Shown: piece after piece, positions 55,996 through 64,000 of the stretch
Position numbering within the stretch: position 1 is the stretch's first letter
Layout of the letters: each line of letters begins with the position of its first letter
NCBI RefSeq assembly: GCF_019278525.1
Contig: NZ_CP058986.1
Coordinates: 1,646,001 to 1,710,000 of the forward strand
DNA: 64,000 bases
From: Polaribacter sp. HaHaR_3_91
GTDB lineage: Bacteria > Bacteroidota > Bacteroidia > Flavobacteriales > Flavobacteriaceae
Reading direction: 5' to 3'
The notes under the pieces: generated by a model
Seen by the model: the letters and a program-made list of their open reading frames with translations, nothing else
What the model was told of the DNA's origin: nothing
The model's database searches: none
Translations under genes and position numbers: made by a program

Positions 55996-56352
55996 TTAAT
56001 ATTCGAATCTTTTTATTCTTAAAAGTAAATCTGTAGGGTTAAAAGGTTTTGTAAGAAAATCGTCTACTCCTAAAGAAAAAGCTTCTAAAACCACATCTTC
56101 TTGCCCAAGAGATGTTAGAATAATTATTTTTATTTGATCGCCATAGTTTTCTTTTATCCACTCTACCAATTCTAACCCAGTTATAAAAGGCATCATAAGA
56201 TCTGTTATTATTAAATCTGGTGTTTCTAATTTAATTTTTTCTATTGCATCTCTTCCGTCAATAGCTACAGAAATTGTGTGATTACTGTCTTTTAAACTAA
56301 ATTCTAATGATCTTCTTACAAAACCACTATCATCTGCTATTAATATTTTCAT
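55996..56352 (-). CDS. single-domain response regulator (CheY-like)
   Basis: A 118-aa receiver with all phosphorylation residues: Asp7-Asp8, Asp51 (IITDLMMP), Thr80 and Lys102 (LTKPFNP). There is no output domain. It is divergent from the kinase-like gene at 56901 with 548 bases between. Because that protein appears unable to phosphorylate, this receiver probably obtains its phosphate from another kinase or interacts with the polysaccharide system directly; both are inference. Confidence 0.9.
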   Translation of the reverse strand: MKILIADDSGFVRRSLEFSLKDSNHTISVAIDGRDAIEKIKLETPDLIITDLMMPFITGLELVEWIKENYGDQIKIIILTSLGQEDVVLEAFSLGVDDFLTKPFNPTDLLLRIKRFEY

Positions 56353-56900: not shown

Positions 56901-58208
56901 TTGGAAAAAGAGAAACTAAAAATAAAAGAATTACAAAAAGAACTATGGAAAATTGGTAATACAATATTTTGGAGTTTAAATGCTGTAATTTTATTAACAA
57001 TTATTTTAGATGTCATTATTTTAAGTAAGAATTGGTTAGATTTTGTTCTGTTAAAATTATTTCTTCTTTTTTCTTTCTATTTTACGTACAATGTTTTCAA
57101 AAAAAAACATGCGACACCTAATATTTTAATTCATTTAGTATTATTCAGTTTTAATTTTTTATCATTAATTTCTATTTCTTATTCTGGTATAGGTAATAGA
57201 ATTGTATATACTTCTTTACTTATCGTTTTATTTGTTGCTTTTAATACCATTGTTTTATGGTCTATTGTAAATAGTTTCATTCAGTATTTATTGGTTATAG
57301 TAACCTTTATAATATTGGTGTTAATGAATGTTATAACAGAACCTCTTCAAATATTAAGAGAAGGCGGGTATCTTTTTTTATCATTAGGTTTTATTAGTTT
57401 TTTCTTTCCAAAAATCAGAAAAAAAGCATTAATAGAAAGAATAGATATAGGAGTTAGAGCAGATGAAAGAATTAATTATTTAGGCGGAGAATTGTCTGAA
57501 GTTAATGCTAATTACGCATTATTACAAAAGAAGGTTTTAAAGAAAGAAAATGAATCTAAATTTCTTTTTCAGCAGATTAGTAGTGATTTAAACGACCTTA
57601 GTGAAACTTTAATAGGAGTTGAAGATAGTTGTTCTGAAAAAGAAAAGAAAGATTTAGATGCTTTAATACAGAATCTAAGAAATCAAAGTTCTATTTATTT
57701 TAAACCGATTAATATAAATACTGTAGATAAAAATTATGCAACAGATACAATAGATGTAAAACAAGTTTATATAGAGATTTTTAAATCATTTGAAAATAAA
57801 ATTAAAGAAAAAAATATTACAGGTATAGATAACTATCCAGCAACTAATACATTAATTCTTGGTAATGAAAAAGTCTTTAAAACTATATTATATAATATTT
57901 TAAATTTTATGGTTACTTTTTCTAACGAGAATGATAAAATAGAAGTAACTATAGGTAACAGAAAAGACGAGACCATATTTAGTGTGTCTAATAAAACTGC
58001 AGGAATAGATACAGCCGAAATAGAATCTTATTTTAGAGATTTAGAGTTTGTTAATTACGACTATAAGAAGCATAGCGATAGTTTAAAGATAGGGTTAAGA
58101 ATTTCTAAACAATTAACAGAAAAAATGAAAGGGTATTTTAGTTACGTTTCTTCAGTAAAAATGGGGTTTGAACTTAAAGTGCAATTTAAAACATATAAAC
58201 AAAAGTAA
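56901..58208 (+). CDS. membrane histidine-kinase-like pseudokinase
   Basis: A 435-aa protein with six membrane helices (about 20-42, 45-66, 72-95, 99-123, 125-146, 155-172), a coiled coil (about 185-260) and a C-terminal ATPase-like domain (about 285-432). The dimerisation helix reads ISSDL (226-230) where kinases have SHDL, so the phosphate-accepting His is Ser228. The N-box (ILYNILNFMVTFS) lacks the second Asn, the G1 box is SNKTAG and the G2 box LKIGL. It therefore looks catalytically dead. TTG start at 56901. It abuts the BcsB-like gene with no gap. Confidence 0.72.
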   Translation: MEKEKLKIKELQKELWKIGNTIFWSLNAVILLTIILDVIILSKNWLDFVLLKLFLLFSFYFTYNVFKKKHATPNILIHLVLFSFNFLSLISISYSGIGNRIVYTSLLIVLFVAFNTIVLWSIVNSFIQYLLVIVTFIILVLMNVITEPLQILREGGYLFLSLGFISFFFPKIRKKALIERIDIGVRADERINYLGGELSEVNANYALLQKKVLKKENESKFLFQQISSDLNDLSETLIGVEDSCSEKEKKDLDALIQNLRNQSSIYFKPININTVDKNYATDTIDVKQVYIEIFKSFENKIKEKNITGIDNYPATNTLILGNEKVFKTILYNILNFMVTFSNENDKIEVTIGNRKDETIFSVSNKTAGIDTAEIESYFRDLEFVNYDYKKHSDSLKIGLRISKQLTEKMKGYFSYVSSVKMGFELKVQFKTYKQK

Positions 58209-60266
58209 GTGATGATGAGAAAATATTATTTTATTGTATTGGCAATCTTGTTAGGTATACATACAAAAGGATTTAGTCAAATAATTGAGCACTTTAATGA
58301 GTATGATTATAATGATGAAATTACTATTAATGGAGCAAAAGGGATGCAAGATATTTATATACCTATTAATGAGGATATAGATAATTTAAACAGTTATGTA
58401 AACTTAGAATTTGCGAGCTCTAGTGTTATAGATTTTAACAATAGTCATATTTCGGTATTATTAGCAGATACTCCAATAGAAACACGTTTTCTTAAAAATC
58501 AGAATCAGTTAATTAGTTTTAAAATACCTGTCAAAAAAAAGTATATAGTTTCTGGTTTTATAAAACTTACTGTTAAAACCAATTTAAAAATAGGTGCAGA
58601 AACATGTGAAATATATTCTGAAGGTGGCTTTTGGGTTAAATTAACAGAAAACTCTTTTTTCTCTTATAAAATTCTACCAACAAAGAAAACACTTGTAGAA
58701 AAAACAATTAGTTATACTGTACCAGATATTAAGTATGTTGTTTTATCAGAAAAAAATAACATTGAAGATATAAAATATGCAGCTTACATTAAGTTTTATT
58801 TAAAGAGAGTTTACGGTTTAGATATTAAAGTTAAAAATATTAAAGAGTTTGATAATAGCGTTATAAGTAATGCAATTATATTAATGCCTTTTGATCATTT
58901 AAGTGAAAAAATAACAAAAGAGTTACCAAACTTTAAAGACAAAGACGCAGGTTTAATTAGTGTATATAGAGATCAAAATAAAGACTCAATTAGTTTAGAA
59001 GTTAGTCAAGGACAAAATATTGTGGTTACCGGAAAAACAGCATTAGGTTTTGGTAAAGCTGCACACTATTTGCTGCAAAAGCATTTATTAAACTCTTCTT
59101 ATGTAGATTATGTTTTTGTAAGAAAACAAGCAAAATTACTAGATATACCAAAAAGGAAAGATTATGAGCCTATCTATTTTAAAGAGTTAGGTGCCCAAAA
59201 CAATGTTTTAAAAGGAATTGGATATATACAATCTAATATTGCTATGCCAAGGTCTAATTTTGGGTCTAATGTAAAAAAAATGGATGTAAAGATAAATGGA
59301 AAATACAGACCTTTAGCAGATGGAGAGCAAGGCTACTTTAACCTTTATTTTAATGATAATTTTTTAAGTTCTTATAAATTAAACGCTACAGGAAATTTAG
59401 ATATAGAGTTTGATTTTGATGATATTGTTATGCAACAAGAAAATAACTTTAAGTACGAGTTTTATTTTGTGCCAAAAGGAGGTTTGTGTGGAACAACAGA
59501 AGCTAAATTTTATGGGCAAATAGATATTGTAAACTCTTATTTTAAACCTATTGGTTACGAGAATTCTTCTTCATTATCATTTTTTAGATTTCCAGAAAAC
59601 TTTCAATCTAAACCTTTAACAGTTTATACAGATTTAGAAGCAGATGATAAATTAATTGCTCCAATATCTGAGTTAATTGATATTATTAATCCAGGAGAAG
59701 CAGGTTTGTCTGGTTTTATTTATCCGGCAATTAAACATGCAAGTTTAAAAGAGATCGAAAAAGACTTAGCAACTTCTAAAATTATTATTAGTTCTAATAG
59801 GGATAAGTTTTCAGACTTTTTTGGAGCATCTACATTTATAAAATTTAAAGATAATACAGTAGAATATAAATCAGAAGAAATCAATCCTTTCTTTAATGTA
59901 GAGTATGAAAAAAGTATGGGGTTCAATCAGCTTTTTTATCATAAAGAAATTCCAATAATGTTGGTTAATGTTCCTGAAGACTATAAAGAAAGTACGTTAT
60001 TGTCATTAGTTTCTAATATTAGAGAACAAACGATCTCAAATACAGGAAATGTAATTGTTTCTGATAATGAAAATTCTTACTTTTTTGATTTAAGATTGGT
60101 AAATGAGAATCATGATAAAAATTATATCAACTATTTGTTAGATGATTTCTGGGGAAAATATAGACTATTTATTGTTTCTGTATTGTTAATTTTAGGAATA
60201 TTGGTCTTGGTGTTTATTTTTCAAAAATCTAAAGAGTCTAAAGCAAAAATTAAAAATGAAAATTAA
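58209..60266 (+). CDS. BcsB-like periplasmic polysaccharide-synthase subunit
   Basis: A 685-aa protein with a signal peptide (cleavage about residue 24), a long beta-rich periplasmic part and a C-terminal membrane helix (about 655-676, LFIVSVLLILGILVLVFIF) followed by a basic tail. This matches BcsB, whose carbohydrate-binding and flavodoxin-like domains alternate; ISNAIILMPFDHL and SKIIISSNRDKF are consistent with the two flavodoxin-like parts, and CGTTEAKFYGQI with the second binding domain. It would pair with the glycosyltransferase at 61089. Similarity is architectural, not confirmed by search. Confidence 0.7.
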   Translation: MMMRKYYFIVLAILLGIHTKGFSQIIEHFNEYDYNDEITINGAKGMQDIYIPINEDIDNLNSYVNLEFASSSVIDFNNSHISVLLADTPIETRFLKNQNQLISFKIPVKKKYIVSGFIKLTVKTNLKIGAETCEIYSEGGFWVKLTENSFFSYKILPTKKTLVEKTISYTVPDIKYVVLSEKNNIEDIKYAAYIKFYLKRVYGLDIKVKNIKEFDNSVISNAIILMPFDHLSEKITKELPNFKDKDAGLISVYRDQNKDSISLEVSQGQNIVVTGKTALGFGKAAHYLLQKHLLNSSYVDYVFVRKQAKLLDIPKRKDYEPIYFKELGAQNNVLKGIGYIQSNIAMPRSNFGSNVKKMDVKINGKYRPLADGEQGYFNLYFNDNFLSSYKLNATGNLDIEFDFDDIVMQQENNFKYEFYFVPKGGLCGTTEAKFYGQIDIVNSYFKPIGYENSSSLSFFRFPENFQSKPLTVYTDLEADDKLIAPISELIDIINPGEAGLSGFIYPAIKHASLKEIEKDLATSKIIISSNRDKFSDFFGASTFIKFKDNTVEYKSEEINPFFNVEYEKSMGFNQLFYHKEIPIMLVNVPEDYKESTLLSLVSNIREQTISNTGNVIVSDNENSYFFDLRLVNENHDKNYINYLLDDFWGKYRLFIVSVLLILGILVLVFIFQKSKESKAKIKNEN

Positions 60267-61083
60267 GTTTCTTATTCTTTTTTTATTATTGAATACATGC
60301 ATATGCTATTCTCAAAACCCATGGCTACAAGGTAAAGGAGACGTATTGTTGTCTCCTTCTGTAACTCATTATTATACAGATACCAATAGTGATAATAGTA
60401 GTAATAAGTCAGACTTTAGTAATAATGGTTTTTATGAAAACTATGTTTATAAACTATATTTTTCTACATCATTAATTAGTAATAAATTAAGTTTAATAGG
60501 AAACATACCATACATTAAAAGTACCTATGGAGATGATTCTACTTTAGATAACAATAACGAATTAGGTGATGTGGAATTAGGTGTAAAAATGCATTTAAAA
60601 AAGATTGGTGAATATCATTATTTAATGGGATCATTAACAACGATAATACCAATGTATAGTAACGATGTTGGGCCATTTGTTGGTTTCGATAAATTTGGAA
60701 CCGAATTAAAGGTTAATATTTCTGGAAACTCTAAATGGATGGGAATTAATGATAACTTTCATCAATTAGAATTTGGTATTAAAAAGTTTTTTGATGGAGG
60801 ACCTTATCAATTTAAACTTTATGGATCACAAGCTTATAGACTTACAGATAAGTTTCTTGTAATGGGAGACGTAGAAGTACTACTTTCTAGAGGTGATGAT
60901 TTTACTGTTTCTCAAGAAAATATTAGAATAACACCAGATTTTGATATCTTAAAAACAACCTTAAATTTTGGGTATGAATTTTCTCCTAATTTTGCTTTAT
61001 ATGCAGGTGGTTTTAGTGATTTATGGAATAGAAATATTTCTGTAGGTAAAGGTTGGCAAATATTTAGTGTCATAAAACTTTAA
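60256..61083 (+). CDS. outer-membrane beta-barrel protein
   Basis: A 275-aa protein with a signal peptide (cleavage after about residue 19) and alternating strands ending in an aromatic/hydrophobic residue (WQIFSVIKL), typical of outer-membrane barrels. The pattern LSLIGNIPYIKS, GDVELGVKMHLKKIG and LNFGYEFSPNFALYAGGFSD resembles the transporter/MetA-like barrel family. It overlaps the BcsB-like gene by 11 bases. It may provide the outer-membrane exit of the polymer in place of BcsC, by inference from position. No TPR region is present. Confidence 0.7.
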   Translation: MKIKFLILFLLLNTCICYSQNPWLQGKGDVLLSPSVTHYYTDTNSDNSSNKSDFSNNGFYENYVYKLYFSTSLISNKLSLIGNIPYIKSTYGDDSTLDNNNELGDVELGVKMHLKKIGEYHYLMGSLTTIIPMYSNDVGPFVGFDKFGTELKVNISGNSKWMGINDNFHQLEFGIKKFFDGGPYQFKLYGSQAYRLTDKFLVMGDVEVLLSRGDDFTVSQENIRITPDFDILKTTLNFGYEFSPNFALYAGGFSDLWNRNISVGKGWQIFSVIKL

Positions 61084-61088
61084 GCGTT

Positions 61089-62939
61089 ATGAGAAGTTTT
61101 AATATAGACCTTCATAGAAAAGAGCTGTTTGTAGAGAGTGAATTGCTTTCTAATAAGCAAGTTTCTGAAATTGAAAGATTTAAAGTTAAATTAAATAAGT
61201 CATTTCTTAAAATAGCACTTAACCACGGGTTTATATCACGTTTTCATTATAATAAAGTAATCGTAGGCTTAGAGCTTCCAACTTATAATATAAACTGTGA
61301 TGAAATAGAGGAATACAAATCTTTTTCTGATACTCACGAACGATTCAATTTATTTTTAAACACATTAATTTTTCCAATAGAGCACAATAATAAAGTTGCT
61401 TTTGTGGTGGCAGATCCATCAGATCTTAATAACATTAGATTAGTAGAAGAAGAGTTGCAAGTAACTGTTTCAGAGATTTTTGTAACCAATGAGTTAGATT
61501 TAAATAAAGCGTTACATTTAAAGTATGGAGGTGAGACTTTACATAAATCCGTTTTTAATTTATATGAAAAAGACCCTGATAGTTGTGCTATAGAAACTTT
61601 TACTTTTAAGCAGGTTATAGCATTAGGAGTGCTCTTTTTTATCTTTTTAATTTTTTTATATTTTAACTTTGTAGATACATTAATTGGAACAAATTTAGTA
61701 TTAAATTTATTTTTGCTATTCTCTATTCTTTTTAAGTTTATGCTTACTATTCATGGCTCTAAAACAGAGCTAGAAAGCAAAGTAAGTAAAGAAGAAATAG
61801 AATTAATTACAGATGAAGAGTTACCTATATATACAATTCATTTACCGGTGTTTAAAGAATCTGAAGTGATTCAGAAATTAGTGTGGAACTTAAATAACCT
61901 TGATTATCCGATAGAAAAATTAGATGCAAAATTGTTAATTGAGTCAGATGATGAGATGACATACAATGCAATTAGAGAGATGAAATTCCCTACTAATTTC
62001 GAACCTATTATAATTCCTTATGCACAACCTAAAACAAAACCAAAAGCATGTAACTATGGGCTGTATTTTTCTAAAGGAAAATATTTAACTATATACGATG
62101 CAGAGGATATACCAGATAGTGATCAATTAAAACAAACGTATAAATTATTTCAGAAACTACCAGAAGATTATATAGCCATACAATGTGCTTTAAACTATTT
62201 TAATAAGAGTGAAAACTTTTTAACGAAGATGTTTACGTTAGAGTACTCTTATTGGTTTGATTATATGCTTCCTGGGTTAGATAGTCTTAGAATTCCGATT
62301 CCGTTAGGCGGTACAAGTAATCATTTTAAGTTTGATAAATTAATGGAACTTGGTGGATGGGATGGTTTTAATGTAACAGAAGATGCAGATTTAGGGTTAC
62401 GTTGTTATGCTAAAGATTATAAAATTACAGTTTTAGATTCTACTACTTATGAAGAAGCAAATAACGAGTTTTTTAATTGGATAAGACAACGCTCTAGATG
62501 GATTAAAGGATACATGCAAACCTATTTGGTTCACATGAGAAATCCTATAAAGTTGTACAAATCTATTGGGACTAGAGGTTTTTTTGGATTTCAGTTTTTT
62601 ATTGGAGGAACGGTATTTACTTTCTTAAGTTATCCTATTTTATTACTTTTTCTATTGATTTATATATGTTTTAAAAGTAAGTGGATAGAGTTGTTGTTTC
62701 CAGATTGGTTAATTATTATTTCTTTAGTTAACTTTACTTTAGGGAACTTAATTATGATTTATACCAATATGATTGCTATTTTTAAAAGAAGATCATACTC
62801 ATTAATAATATACGCTTTAGCAAACCCTGTTTATTGGTTAATGCATTCTATCTCTGCATACAAAGGGTTACATCAATTAATAACCAAACCTTTTTATTGG
62901 GAAAAAACCAATCATGGTTTAACTAAAAAGAAGAATTAA
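61089..62939 (+). CDS. BcsA/XagB-like processive glycosyltransferase with GspE-N-like domain
   Basis: A 616-aa membrane glycosyltransferase of family 2. Residues 1-155 resemble the GspE/MshEN N-terminal domain (KVAFVVADPSDLNNIRLVEE and LDLNKALHLKYGGE). Two helices (about 173-225) follow, then the GT-A domain with DAED (337-340), TED (430-432) and QRSRW (467-471), the hallmarks of processive synthases. At least four more helices end the chain. There is no C-terminal PilZ domain. It starts 5 bases after the barrel gene. The polymer is unknown; XagB-type enzymes make a secreted polysaccharide. Confidence 0.85.
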   Translation: MRSFNIDLHRKELFVESELLSNKQVSEIERFKVKLNKSFLKIALNHGFISRFHYNKVIVGLELPTYNINCDEIEEYKSFSDTHERFNLFLNTLIFPIEHNNKVAFVVADPSDLNNIRLVEEELQVTVSEIFVTNELDLNKALHLKYGGETLHKSVFNLYEKDPDSCAIETFTFKQVIALGVLFFIFLIFLYFNFVDTLIGTNLVLNLFLLFSILFKFMLTIHGSKTELESKVSKEEIELITDEELPIYTIHLPVFKESEVIQKLVWNLNNLDYPIEKLDAKLLIESDDEMTYNAIREMKFPTNFEPIIIPYAQPKTKPKACNYGLYFSKGKYLTIYDAEDIPDSDQLKQTYKLFQKLPEDYIAIQCALNYFNKSENFLTKMFTLEYSYWFDYMLPGLDSLRIPIPLGGTSNHFKFDKLMELGGWDGFNVTEDADLGLRCYAKDYKITVLDSTTYEEANNEFFNWIRQRSRWIKGYMQTYLVHMRNPIKLYKSIGTRGFFGFQFFIGGTVFTFLSYPILLLFLLIYICFKSKWIELLFPDWLIIISLVNFTLGNLIMIYTNMIAIFKRRSYSLIIYALANPVYWLMHSISAYKGLHQLITKPFYWEKTNHGLTKKKN

Positions 62940-62948
62940 AAAAAAGGT

Positions 62949-64000
62949 ATGGATAAAATTAAGACAAAGAGTTCAACGCTATCTTTTTTTATAATATGGT
63001 TTGTTTACTTAGCTTTTTACAGTTTTGTAACAATGGTAATTCGTGAAGATGGATATTTAAATTTTGAACCTCTATTTATTACAAGCCATATAAATACATT
63101 GTTTGATAGTGGAGAGTTGGTTAAAAATTTCTTTTTATCTTATCCTTTGTTAACGAATGTGTTATCTTATCCTTTTTCTGTATTTAGCGCAGTAGATGCT
63201 CCTTTTTTTGCATCGATATTTTATACTTCATTGTTTACAACAATGGTAGTAACTATTGTAGGGAAAGAGAAAAATAAAGTAATTAAAGTACTTTTGTTTT
63301 TATATTTCTTATTTAGTCCAATAACATTTTATACAGCAACTTCTGGTACATCGTTGTATGCTTTTTACATCTTATATTTTTTAATTTTTTATTATCTATT
63401 TAATTACATTAAAAAATTTACAACGTATCACATAGCAATACTTAGTATTATTTTAAGTTTAGCAATATTTTTAGATTATAGAATTTTATGGATACTTCTT
63501 CTTCTAGTTTTTCATGTATTTGTTTTTAGTATATACGGAGTAAAAGGATTGTTATCTTCAAATGTTATTATTAAGTATATTAAAATTACACAACATAAAT
63601 CATTAAGAAGAAAGTTTAGAGGGCGTTTAGGATCTATGGTGTTTATTATTGGTTTTTTTCCTATAACAAGTTTATTATTGTATTTATTTATCAATTATTT
63701 AATGGGAGATGATTCTTTTTATTTTTATAATTCATTAGAAACTAGATGGAATGGTAATAGTTTTTTAAGCTTAATAGATTCAGATAGTATTACAAGTTTA
63801 AAGAATAAAGCAGTAAACGATTTTTCTTTTCTTTTTATAGTTGCTTTTATAGTACCTATTTATCTGTTTGAATTGATAAGTCATTACAAGAGAGGTCTAA
63901 AAGTCTTTATTTTATTATTAGTTCCGTTATTGTTATATGTTTTGGTAAGAGGTAGTCAAATTGACTATATGGGCTTATTTTATTATGTTATTATTATAGC
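62949..64000 (+). CDS. multi-pass membrane protein, 5' part (cut by window end)
   Basis: The frame stays open from ATG 62949 to the window edge, at least 350 residues, with about nine hydrophobic helices and short polar loops such as VIREDGYLNFEPLF near residue 30. It starts 9 bases after the glycosyltransferase stop, so it belongs to the same operon. The pattern recalls membrane-embedded GT-C or polymerase-like proteins, but no motif fixes this. Confidence 0.7.
   Translation, partial: MDKIKTKSSTLSFFIIWFVYLAFYSFVTMVIREDGYLNFEPLFITSHINTLFDSGELVKNFFLSYPLLTNVLSYPFSVFSAVDAPFFASIFYTSLFTTMVVTIVGKEKNKVIKVLLFLYFLFSPITFYTATSGTSLYAFYILYFLIFYYLFNYIKKFTTYHIAILSIILSLAIFLDYRILWILLLLVFHVFVFSIYGVKGLLSSNVIIKYIKITQHKSLRRKFRGRLGSMVFIIGFFPITSLLLYLFINYLMGDDSFYFYNSLETRWNGNSFLSLIDSDSITSLKNKAVNDFSFLFIVAFIVPIYLFELISHYKRGLKVFILLLVPLLLYVLVRGSQIDYMGLFYYVIII

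What the first reader, a model, noticed from the sequence alone, without database searches (positions are those of the whole stretch)
56901..64000. Possible undescribed polysaccharide synthesis and export system with a pseudokinase
Five tightly packed genes (gaps from -11 to 9 bases) combine a histidine-kinase-like pseudokinase, a BcsB-like periplasmic protein, an outer-membrane barrel and a BcsA/XagB-like glycosyltransferase, plus a further membrane protein. Known cellulose systems use PilZ for c-di-GMP control and a TPR-BcsC pore; neither is visible here. The GspE-N-like domain on the synthase and the kinase-like protein may supply regulation instead. The motifs are seen; the system idea is inference.
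Basis: partly seen in the sequence, partly recalled or inferred. Interest (0 to 1): 0.7.

Follow-up and report, generated by a model that had tools for sequence, protein, structure and literature searches.

The report
Polysaccharide synthase cluster lacking c-di-GMP switch
A marine Bacteroidota genome carries a compact gene cluster, kept in the same order in many relatives, that looks built to make and export a sugar polymer; the usual c-di-GMP control site on its synthase is worn away, and a sensor-kinase-like protein, itself dead in this lineage, heads the cluster.

Summary
The five packed genes are real; the last runs on to window-equivalent 64529. They form a conserved exopolysaccharide locus: kinase-like protein, BcsB, (outer-membrane barrel), GT2 synthase, GT-C glycosyltransferase, often with a GH5 endoglucanase next door (53 of 81 loci). 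Of 81 loci, 52 read HK-BcsB-GT2-GTC and 16 add the barrel. The closest published kind is the bcsB-xagBCD/sfz cassette of stalk-forming iron oxidisers and Xanthomonas Xag, so 'undescribed' is too strong. The new part is control. The synthase's MshEN-type domain lacks the c-di-GMP motif in 198 of 198 relatives examined, while outgroup synthases keep most or all of it. GGDEF, EAL, PilZ and BcsC_C find no match in this genome. The histidine kinase heading the operon keeps its His in 67 of 72 loci, but this clade has lost all four catalytic boxes under purifying selection. A single-domain response regulator adjoins 11 of 81 loci, at several positions. Best reading: an EPS synthase uncoupled from c-di-GMP and tied to two-component signalling, with a pseudokinase here. 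The polymer and the wiring are inferred.

The parts
55996..56352 (-). Single-domain (CheY-like) response regulator, divergent from the operon; probable partner
   Evidence: PF00072 E 4.6e-28. Same divergent place in 4 of 4 loci of the window clade (L004, L009, L010, L011); single-domain RRs adjoin 11 of 81 loci at different positions. The acidic pair, phospho-acceptor Asp, Thr/Ser and Lys read as intact by eye (sequence printed; motif recalled).
56901..58208 (+). Membrane histidine-kinase-like pseudokinase, 435 aa, TTG start
   Evidence: HATPase_c PF02518 E 1.5e-9; H, N, D, G2 boxes all lost; dN/dS 0.13-0.22; 32 homologues in the protein search, the 27 full-length ones all without the His.
58209..60266 (+). 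BcsB-like periplasmic, membrane-anchored subunit, 685 aa
   Evidence: PF03170 E 6e-20; profile hits solved BcsB; 37 close homologues.
60256..61083 (+). Outer-membrane beta-barrel, 12 strands predicted, 275 aa
61089..62939 (+). Processive-type GT2 polysaccharide synthase with N-terminal degenerate MshEN (T2SSE_N) domain, 616 aa
   Evidence: PF13632 E 8e-22; catalytic residues invariant in 24 aligned relatives; MshEN c-di-GMP motif absent.
62949..64000 (+). GT-C-fold membrane glycosyltransferase, 526 aa in full; continues to window-equivalent 64529 (L004:7950-9530)

Best explanation
It is a synthase-dependent exopolysaccharide machine of the bcsB-xagB-xagC kind. The GT2 protein polymerises a nucleotide sugar and passes the chain through the inner membrane to the BcsB-like protein (inferred by homology to BcsA-BcsB). 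The GT-C enzyme is likely to decorate or branch the chain on the periplasmic side from a lipid-linked sugar (inferred from fold). The 12-strand barrel is a candidate exit pore in lineages that have it. The GH5 enzyme trims or releases the polymer, as GH8 BcsZ or GH5 CcsZ do (inferred). In these Bacteroidota the synthase is no longer switched by c-di-GMP (shown: motif lost; the cyclase family is rare in the class). The operon's membrane histidine kinase, with a CheY-like response regulator in several lineages, probably supplies control (inferred from linkage). In the window's clade the kinase has become a pseudokinase kept by selection (shown); it probably binds its regulator or the synthase complex as a reader rather than phosphorylating anything (inferred; DivL is the precedent).
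For: Conserved order in 81 loci: HK-BcsB-GT2-GTC 52, with barrel 16, remainder mostly cut by contig ends or split ORFs; tight gaps. BcsB, GT2, GT-C and GH5 identities. Same BcsB-GT2-GTC core on a Geobacillus plasmid and a Hyphomicrobiales plasmid. c-di-GMP motif: published relaxed motif in 0 of 198; R1 and G3 of motif II 0 of 198, R1 of motif I 0 of 198, G3 of motif I 1 of 198; NfrB, Geobacillus and Hyphomicrobiales keep G3 in both motifs. GGDEF absent here, found in 4 of 49 searched holders (47 distinct genomes) and 7 of 295 genomes of the class. Kinase: His kept 67 of 72, lost in one GT2 clade of five (support 86/82); dN/dS 0.13-0.22, like its neighbours except the slower GT2. RR adjacent in 11 of 81 loci, 11 of 143 adjacent slots against 3 of 625 other ORFs, Fisher p 1.5e-6.
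Against: Nothing shows polymer, enzyme activity or regulation directly. RR linkage is missing in 70 of 81 loci, including every Mucilaginibacter-type locus examined, and in L012, which also has a dead kinase; the Fisher test ignores shared ancestry. The barrel gene is next to the operon in only 18 of 81 loci, so it may not be the general pore. NfrB's first motif also fails the relaxed pattern though NfrB binds c-di-GMP in print, so failing the pattern does not alone exclude binding. GGDEF rarity is a feature of the class, not of holders of this system. Barrel and GT-C models are predictions with 16 and 28 sequences.
Confidence: 0.6

Rival explanations
1. The kinase-like protein is an ordinary operon-linked sensor that controls transcription of the cluster or something unrelated, and in the window clade it is simply decaying; the synthase is constitutively active or set by substrate supply.
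For: Kinase linkage alone does not show post-translational control; His is lost in 5 of 72 loci and the N- and D-box residues are already gone in several other lineages. The linked RRs have no DNA-binding output domain in the 8 scanned, which fits poorly with direct transcription control.
Against: Purifying selection on the dead kinase (dN/dS 0.13-0.22), and an intact ORF in 27 full-length homologues at 51-100% identity. Co-retention with BcsB and GT2 in most complete loci.
Confidence: 0.25
2. The degenerate MshEN domain still senses a nucleotide, either c-di-GMP by a changed site or another one, and remains the main switch.
For: The domain is retained in all 25 members scanned (PF05157 at E<=0.1 in 25 of 25, best 6.2e-14) and has invariant residues. 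NfrB binds c-di-GMP although one of its two motifs departs from the pattern.
Against: R1 and G3 of motif II are gone in 198 of 198; GGDEF, EAL and PilZ give no match in this genome.
Confidence: 0.15
3. The polymer is a beta-mannan or glucomannan rather than a cellulose-like glucan.
For: The Geobacillus plasmid version is led by an NTP_transferase + MannoseP_isomer protein of the GDP-mannose type. The GH5 enzyme is nearest FnCel5A and Thermotoga Cel5A-type endoglucanases, some of which are recalled to cut mannans as well.
Against: The Geobacillus outgroup is on a long branch, and no sugar-nucleotide gene was seen next to the core in the 16 Bacteroidota-type loci listed. GT2 models score best for CelA and PgaC, below cut-off.
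Confidence: 0.3

Closest known systems
bcsB-xagBCD / sfz cassette of stalk-forming Ferriphaselus and Mariprofundus (PMC4643136, PMC8250860; passages and sections 16-17 seen)
   Same: BcsB-like protein, then a GT2 with an N-terminal T2SS-E type domain, a ~500-510-aa protein of unknown function, and a ~323-345-aa glycoside hydrolase, clustered. The Kryptonia locus L075 also has a CotH protein upstream, as sfz6 has a CotH domain.
   Different: No histidine kinase is described there; the hydrolase is called GH10, here GH5. Those papers propose c-di-GMP control.
Xanthomonas xagABCD (PMC3609779, passages seen)
   Same: Several relatives of the window's GT2 bear the source name 'glycosyltransferase XagB'; xag genes affect biofilm.
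   Different: Xag lies in a c-di-GMP-using organism under RpfG; no kinase at the operon head is described in the passages seen. No direct sequence comparison was possible.
E. coli NfrBA-YbcH (PMC8669469, passages seen)
   Same: GT2 synthase fused to an MshEN domain, with a periplasmic and an outer-membrane protein.
   Different: NfrB binds c-di-GMP and keeps G3 in both motifs; its MshEN is C-terminal; NfrA is a TPR pore. The GT2 profile of this family does not report NfrB at E<=0.01.
Bcs cellulose synthases (BcsABZC)
   Same: BcsA-like GT2, BcsB, an endoglucanase.
   Different: No PilZ, no TPR-BcsC; MshEN-type domain and GT-C enzyme instead.
DivL pseudokinase of Caulobacter (PMC4211667, outline and section 15 seen)
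   Same: Histidine-kinase fold without kinase activity, next to the idea of a single-domain response regulator read by the pseudokinase.
   Different: DivL acts in the cell cycle, is not linked to a polysaccharide synthase and is not shown here to be related beyond the general HK fold (4q20 in the list).

Membership tests
bcsB-xagB-xagC (sfz) exopolysaccharide cassette | BcsB-family gene directly beside the GT2 gene | tested here: met
   PF03170; a BcsB-like ORF within three genes of the GT2 in 79 of 81 loci
bcsB-xagB-xagC (sfz) exopolysaccharide cassette | GT2 with N-terminal T2SSE_N/MshEN-type domain | tested here: met
   PF05157 at E<=0.1 in 25 of 25 family members scanned, window member below curated cut-off; profile hits PilB and MshE structures
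bcsB-xagB-xagC (sfz) exopolysaccharide cassette | XagC/Sfz3-like protein of ~500 aa homologous to the GT-C gene | not testable with these tools
   Xag and sfz sequences were not held; only length and place agree. A cognate GTC is found beside BcsB-GT2 in Geobacillus (E 1e-10) and Hyphomicrobiales (E 2.5e-9) plasmids
bcsB-xagB-xagC (sfz) exopolysaccharide cassette | Linked glycoside hydrolase | tested here: met
   GH5 PF00150 E 9.7e-33 next to the operon; GH5 within five genes in 53 of 81 loci; the published one is called GH10
Bcs cellulose synthase | BcsA-type GT2 catalytic motifs (D, DxD-like, TED, QxxRW) | tested here: met
   D287/D288, D337-D340, T430-D432, Q467-W471 invariant in 24 aligned sequences
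Bcs cellulose synthase | C-terminal PilZ domain on the synthase | tested here: not met
   No PilZ in the GT2 nor a match in the genome
Bcs cellulose synthase | TPR-BcsC outer-membrane pore | tested here: not met
   No BCSC_C match in the genome; the cluster's barrel is predicted 12-stranded
NfrB-type c-di-GMP-controlled synthase | MshEN c-di-GMP motifs RLGxx... | tested here: not met
   Relaxed published motif in 0 of 198; R1 and G3 of motif II 0 of 198
Active histidine kinase | Phospho-acceptor His, N-box Asn, D-box Asp, G2 box | tested here: not met
   All four replaced in the window clade; all four kept in 44 of 44 Mucilaginibacter-type and 2 of 2 Spirosomataceae loci
DivL-like pseudokinase | Binds a phosphorylated single-domain response regulator | not testable with these tools
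   An RR gene adjoins 11 of 81 loci; binding not tested
GT-C glycosyltransferases (PMT/ArnT/OST) | GT-C fold with an acidic residue in the first periplasmic loop | tested here: met

The most novel reading that the evidence does not exclude
A polysaccharide synthase controlled after translation by two-component phosphorylation instead of c-di-GMP: a membrane kinase, or in this clade a DivL-like pseudokinase, reads the phosphorylated state of a single-domain response regulator and gates the BcsB-GT2 complex through the repurposed, ligand-blind MshEN domain. The kinase then decayed to a pure reader in one clade while the regulator stayed.
Probability: 0.22. Interest if true: 0.82.

Novelty: new variant of a known kind. 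Interest (0 to 1): 0.56.

Why it matters
Synthase-dependent exopolysaccharides of the cellulose, PGA and Nfr types are the textbook targets of c-di-GMP. A family of such synthases that has lost the c-di-GMP site, in a class where the cyclase family is rare, poses a direct question: what switches these polymers on? The operon itself offers the candidate, a kinase-like protein with every stage from intact to dead preserved in living relatives, which makes a DivL-style repurposing testable by comparing a Mucilaginibacter (active-looking) with a Formosa/Algibacter-type (dead) system. It also gives a name and likely fold to a widespread unannotated GT-C protein in these clusters.

Tried and rejected
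Rejected: that the locus is unique to Flavobacteriaceae. Rejected: that GGDEF absence is specific to holders of this system; it is found in only 7 of 295 genomes of the class, while 203 of 395 of a wider phylum sample have it, so the absence is a class trait. Rejected as a close relative: NfrB, which the GT2 family profile does not report at E<=0.01.

Led nowhere: Pfam for the GT-C gene (28 members) and the barrel (16 members) gave no family; the GT-C profile hit no solved sequence; plain BcsB against solved structures gave only weak repeat-protein hits, and only the profile found BcsB. Paper searches for XagB with Bacteroidota returned 0 papers; searches showed no description of this Bacteroidota cluster in their listings, which covers only the held open library. 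The 'find' in PMC7112194 for Bacteroid, Xag, MshEN and histidine kinase gave 0 occurrences.

Rows dropped before counts: A1 used 23 of the 120 listed GT2 homologues plus the window's; A2 used 24 of 28 kinase ORFs listed; A3 28 of 29 (L086 left out, 822 aa); A4 16 of 18 barrels; A5 26 locus BcsB proteins plus 10 of 37 homologues (the split L011 and short L015 left out); A6 25 of 28. The kinase counts use the 72 loci with an ORF of at least 380 aa of 81; the MshEN counts use 198 proteins over 560 aa (79 loci and 119 search hits, 186 distinct N-termini). GGDEF was sought in 49 handles of the 83 then in hand (80 loci, G144, G153, G000); G144 and G153 prove to be the genomes of L018 and L010, so 47 are distinct. 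A first count by regular expression missed the HELKN box of L013; one search corrects it. In one search not every column letter was printed; completes it.

Full report
What is there. The window ends inside a five-gene operon: a kinase-like protein (56901-58208), a BcsB-like protein (58209-60266), a small outer-membrane protein (60256-61083), a GT2 synthase (61089-62939) and a membrane protein cut by the window edge, with gaps 0, -11, 5 and 9 bases. The whole genome (one contig of 4.21 Mb) shows that the last protein has 526 aa and that a GH5 cellulase gene, on the other strand, follows at once. A single-domain response regulator lies divergently upstream. The next genes downstream of the GH5 gene read as housekeeping by their sequence.

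Is it a system? A scan of species genomes brought 80 further loci (capped at the best 80 of 573). Of 81 loci, 52 read HK-BcsB-GT2-GTC and 16 HK-BcsB-barrel-GT2-GTC; 13 show other strings, mostly because a contig ends or an ORF is split. By a looser count an HK-type ORF is near the GT2 in 73, BcsB in 79, GTC in 79, the barrel in 18 and GH5 in 53 of 81. The loci come from Flavobacteriaceae, Cyclobacteriaceae, Spirosomataceae, Sphingobacteriaceae and Chitinophagaceae, plus a MAG titled Kryptonia. The same BcsB-GT2-GTC core occurs on a conjugative Geobacillus plasmid and a Hyphomicrobiales plasmid, without a kinase at the head. Prevalence is low: 3 of 199 in the family at E<=1e-60, 5 of 295 in the class and 11 of 395 in the phylum sample at E<=1e-100.

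Loss of the c-di-GMP site. [quoted passage not shown] The domain is recognisable in 25 of 25 family members scanned (PF05157 at E<=0.1, best 6.2e-14), and a profile of it finds PilB, XpsE and MshE structures. Yet the published relaxed motif occurs in 0 of 198 N-termini. R1 and G3 of motif II are absent in 198 of 198, R1 of motif I in 198 of 198, and G3 of motif I is present in 1 of 198. As controls, E. coli NfrB, the Geobacillus synthase and the Hyphomicrobiales synthase keep G3 in both motifs. Two cautions: by the full relaxed pattern NfrB and Geobacillus each pass in only one of their two motifs, and NfrB binds c-di-GMP in print, so pattern failure alone is not proof. The Geobacillus GT2 is 53% identical to the window's over residues 132-614, about as close as Mucilaginibacter, so the contrast is not merely distance.

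The signal itself is scarce. This genome has no match to GGDEF, EAL or PilZ (the controls ring in 8, 6 and 5 of 14 genomes). Among 49 handles with the system (47 distinct), 4 have a GGDEF match: L013, L047, L053 and L075. But the class as a whole has only 7 of 295, against 203 of 395 in a wider phylum sample. The right statement is that the synthase family has adapted to a class that mostly lacks the cyclase, not that holders are special.

The kinase. Across 72 loci with a long enough ORF, the phospho-acceptor His is kept in 67. All four boxes (H, N, D, G2) are kept in 44 of 44 Mucilaginibacter-type and 2 of 2 Spirosomataceae loci. Chitinophagaceae-type keep H and N (11 of 11) but D in 1 of 11. 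Eight Flavobacteriaceae/Cytophagaceae/Cyclobacteriaceae loci keep H and GxGL but have lost N and D. The window clade (4 of 4 loci, and 27 of 27 full-length protein hits, which overlap with the loci) and W. heitensis (L012) have lost all four. On the GT2 tree the five His-less loci form one group (support 86/82), so one loss is likely but not certain. The dead kinase is under purifying selection (dN/dS 0.13-0.22; dS above 1, so rough) like BcsB, barrel and GTC, while GT2 is slower (0.04-0.06). Its most conserved block is residues 376-425, in the dead ATPase domain.

The response regulator. Single-domain receivers adjoin 11 of 81 loci: divergent in the window clade (4), just after GTC in L013, L017 and L018, directly before the kinase in L061 and L084 (4 and 3 bases), upstream in L086, and convergent after GTC in L079. 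Against 3 of 625 other ORFs, 11 of 143 adjacent slots is unlikely by chance (Fisher 1.5e-6), though shared ancestry inflates this. The four or more arrangements argue for repeated linkage. No single-domain receiver was found next to the other 70 loci, including all Mucilaginibacter-type ones.

How it most likely works. Shown: the parts, their order, the lost motif, the dead kinase and its selection. Inferred: polymer synthesis and translocation by GT2-BcsB; decoration by GT-C; exit through the barrel where present; trimming by GH5; control by the kinase/RR pair, and in this clade by a pseudokinase that reads a phosphorylated regulator. DivL is the precedent: it lacks kinase and phosphatase activity yet binds DivK~P (PMC4211667, section 15). 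The polymer may be a beta-glucan (GH5 endoglucanase, BcsB) or a mannan (the Geobacillus version is led by a GDP-mannose-type enzyme).

Against the known. The published bcsB-xagBCD/sfz cassette of stalk-forming iron oxidisers (PMC4643136 and PMC8250860) matches in gene content and protein lengths, and the L075 locus shares a CotH gene with it. I could not compare sequences. NfrBA shares the GT2-MshEN idea only. Bcs membership fails on PilZ and BcsC. The kinase-headed, c-di-GMP-site-less form was not seen in print in searches of the held open library.

Noticed in passing
L089 (Geobacillus stearothermophilus plasmid CP128455.1), 3195-9932: A conjugative plasmid carries NTP_transferase/MannoseP_isomer - BcsB - GT2 - GT39 genes: an exopolysaccharide synthase on a mobile element of a Gram-positive host.
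   Followed up: partly
L075:3449-6250: A CotH kinase-domain protein with a Por secretion tail sits directly upstream of BcsB in the locus titled Kryptonia; the sfz cluster of Zetaproteobacteria also has a CotH protein.
   Followed up: partly
L086:3723-4802 and L079:458-2083: MORN_2-repeat proteins that begin like lipoproteins lie upstream of the kinase gene in both deep-branching loci.
   Followed up: no
L021:4187-5167: A fatty acid desaturase 2 gene stands next to the GH5 gene here; an ORF of similar length is at that place in many Mucilaginibacter-type loci.
   Followed up: no
L011:7121-9178: BcsB is split into two ORFs in Wenyingzhuangia marina, while the other operon genes are intact. Left as it is.
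   Followed up: no
L017:13361-17687: Downstream of the operon lie a single-domain RR, a 1168-aa protein with many PAS domains, GAF and HATPase_c, and a second receiver: a larger signalling block beside the synthase.
   Followed up: no
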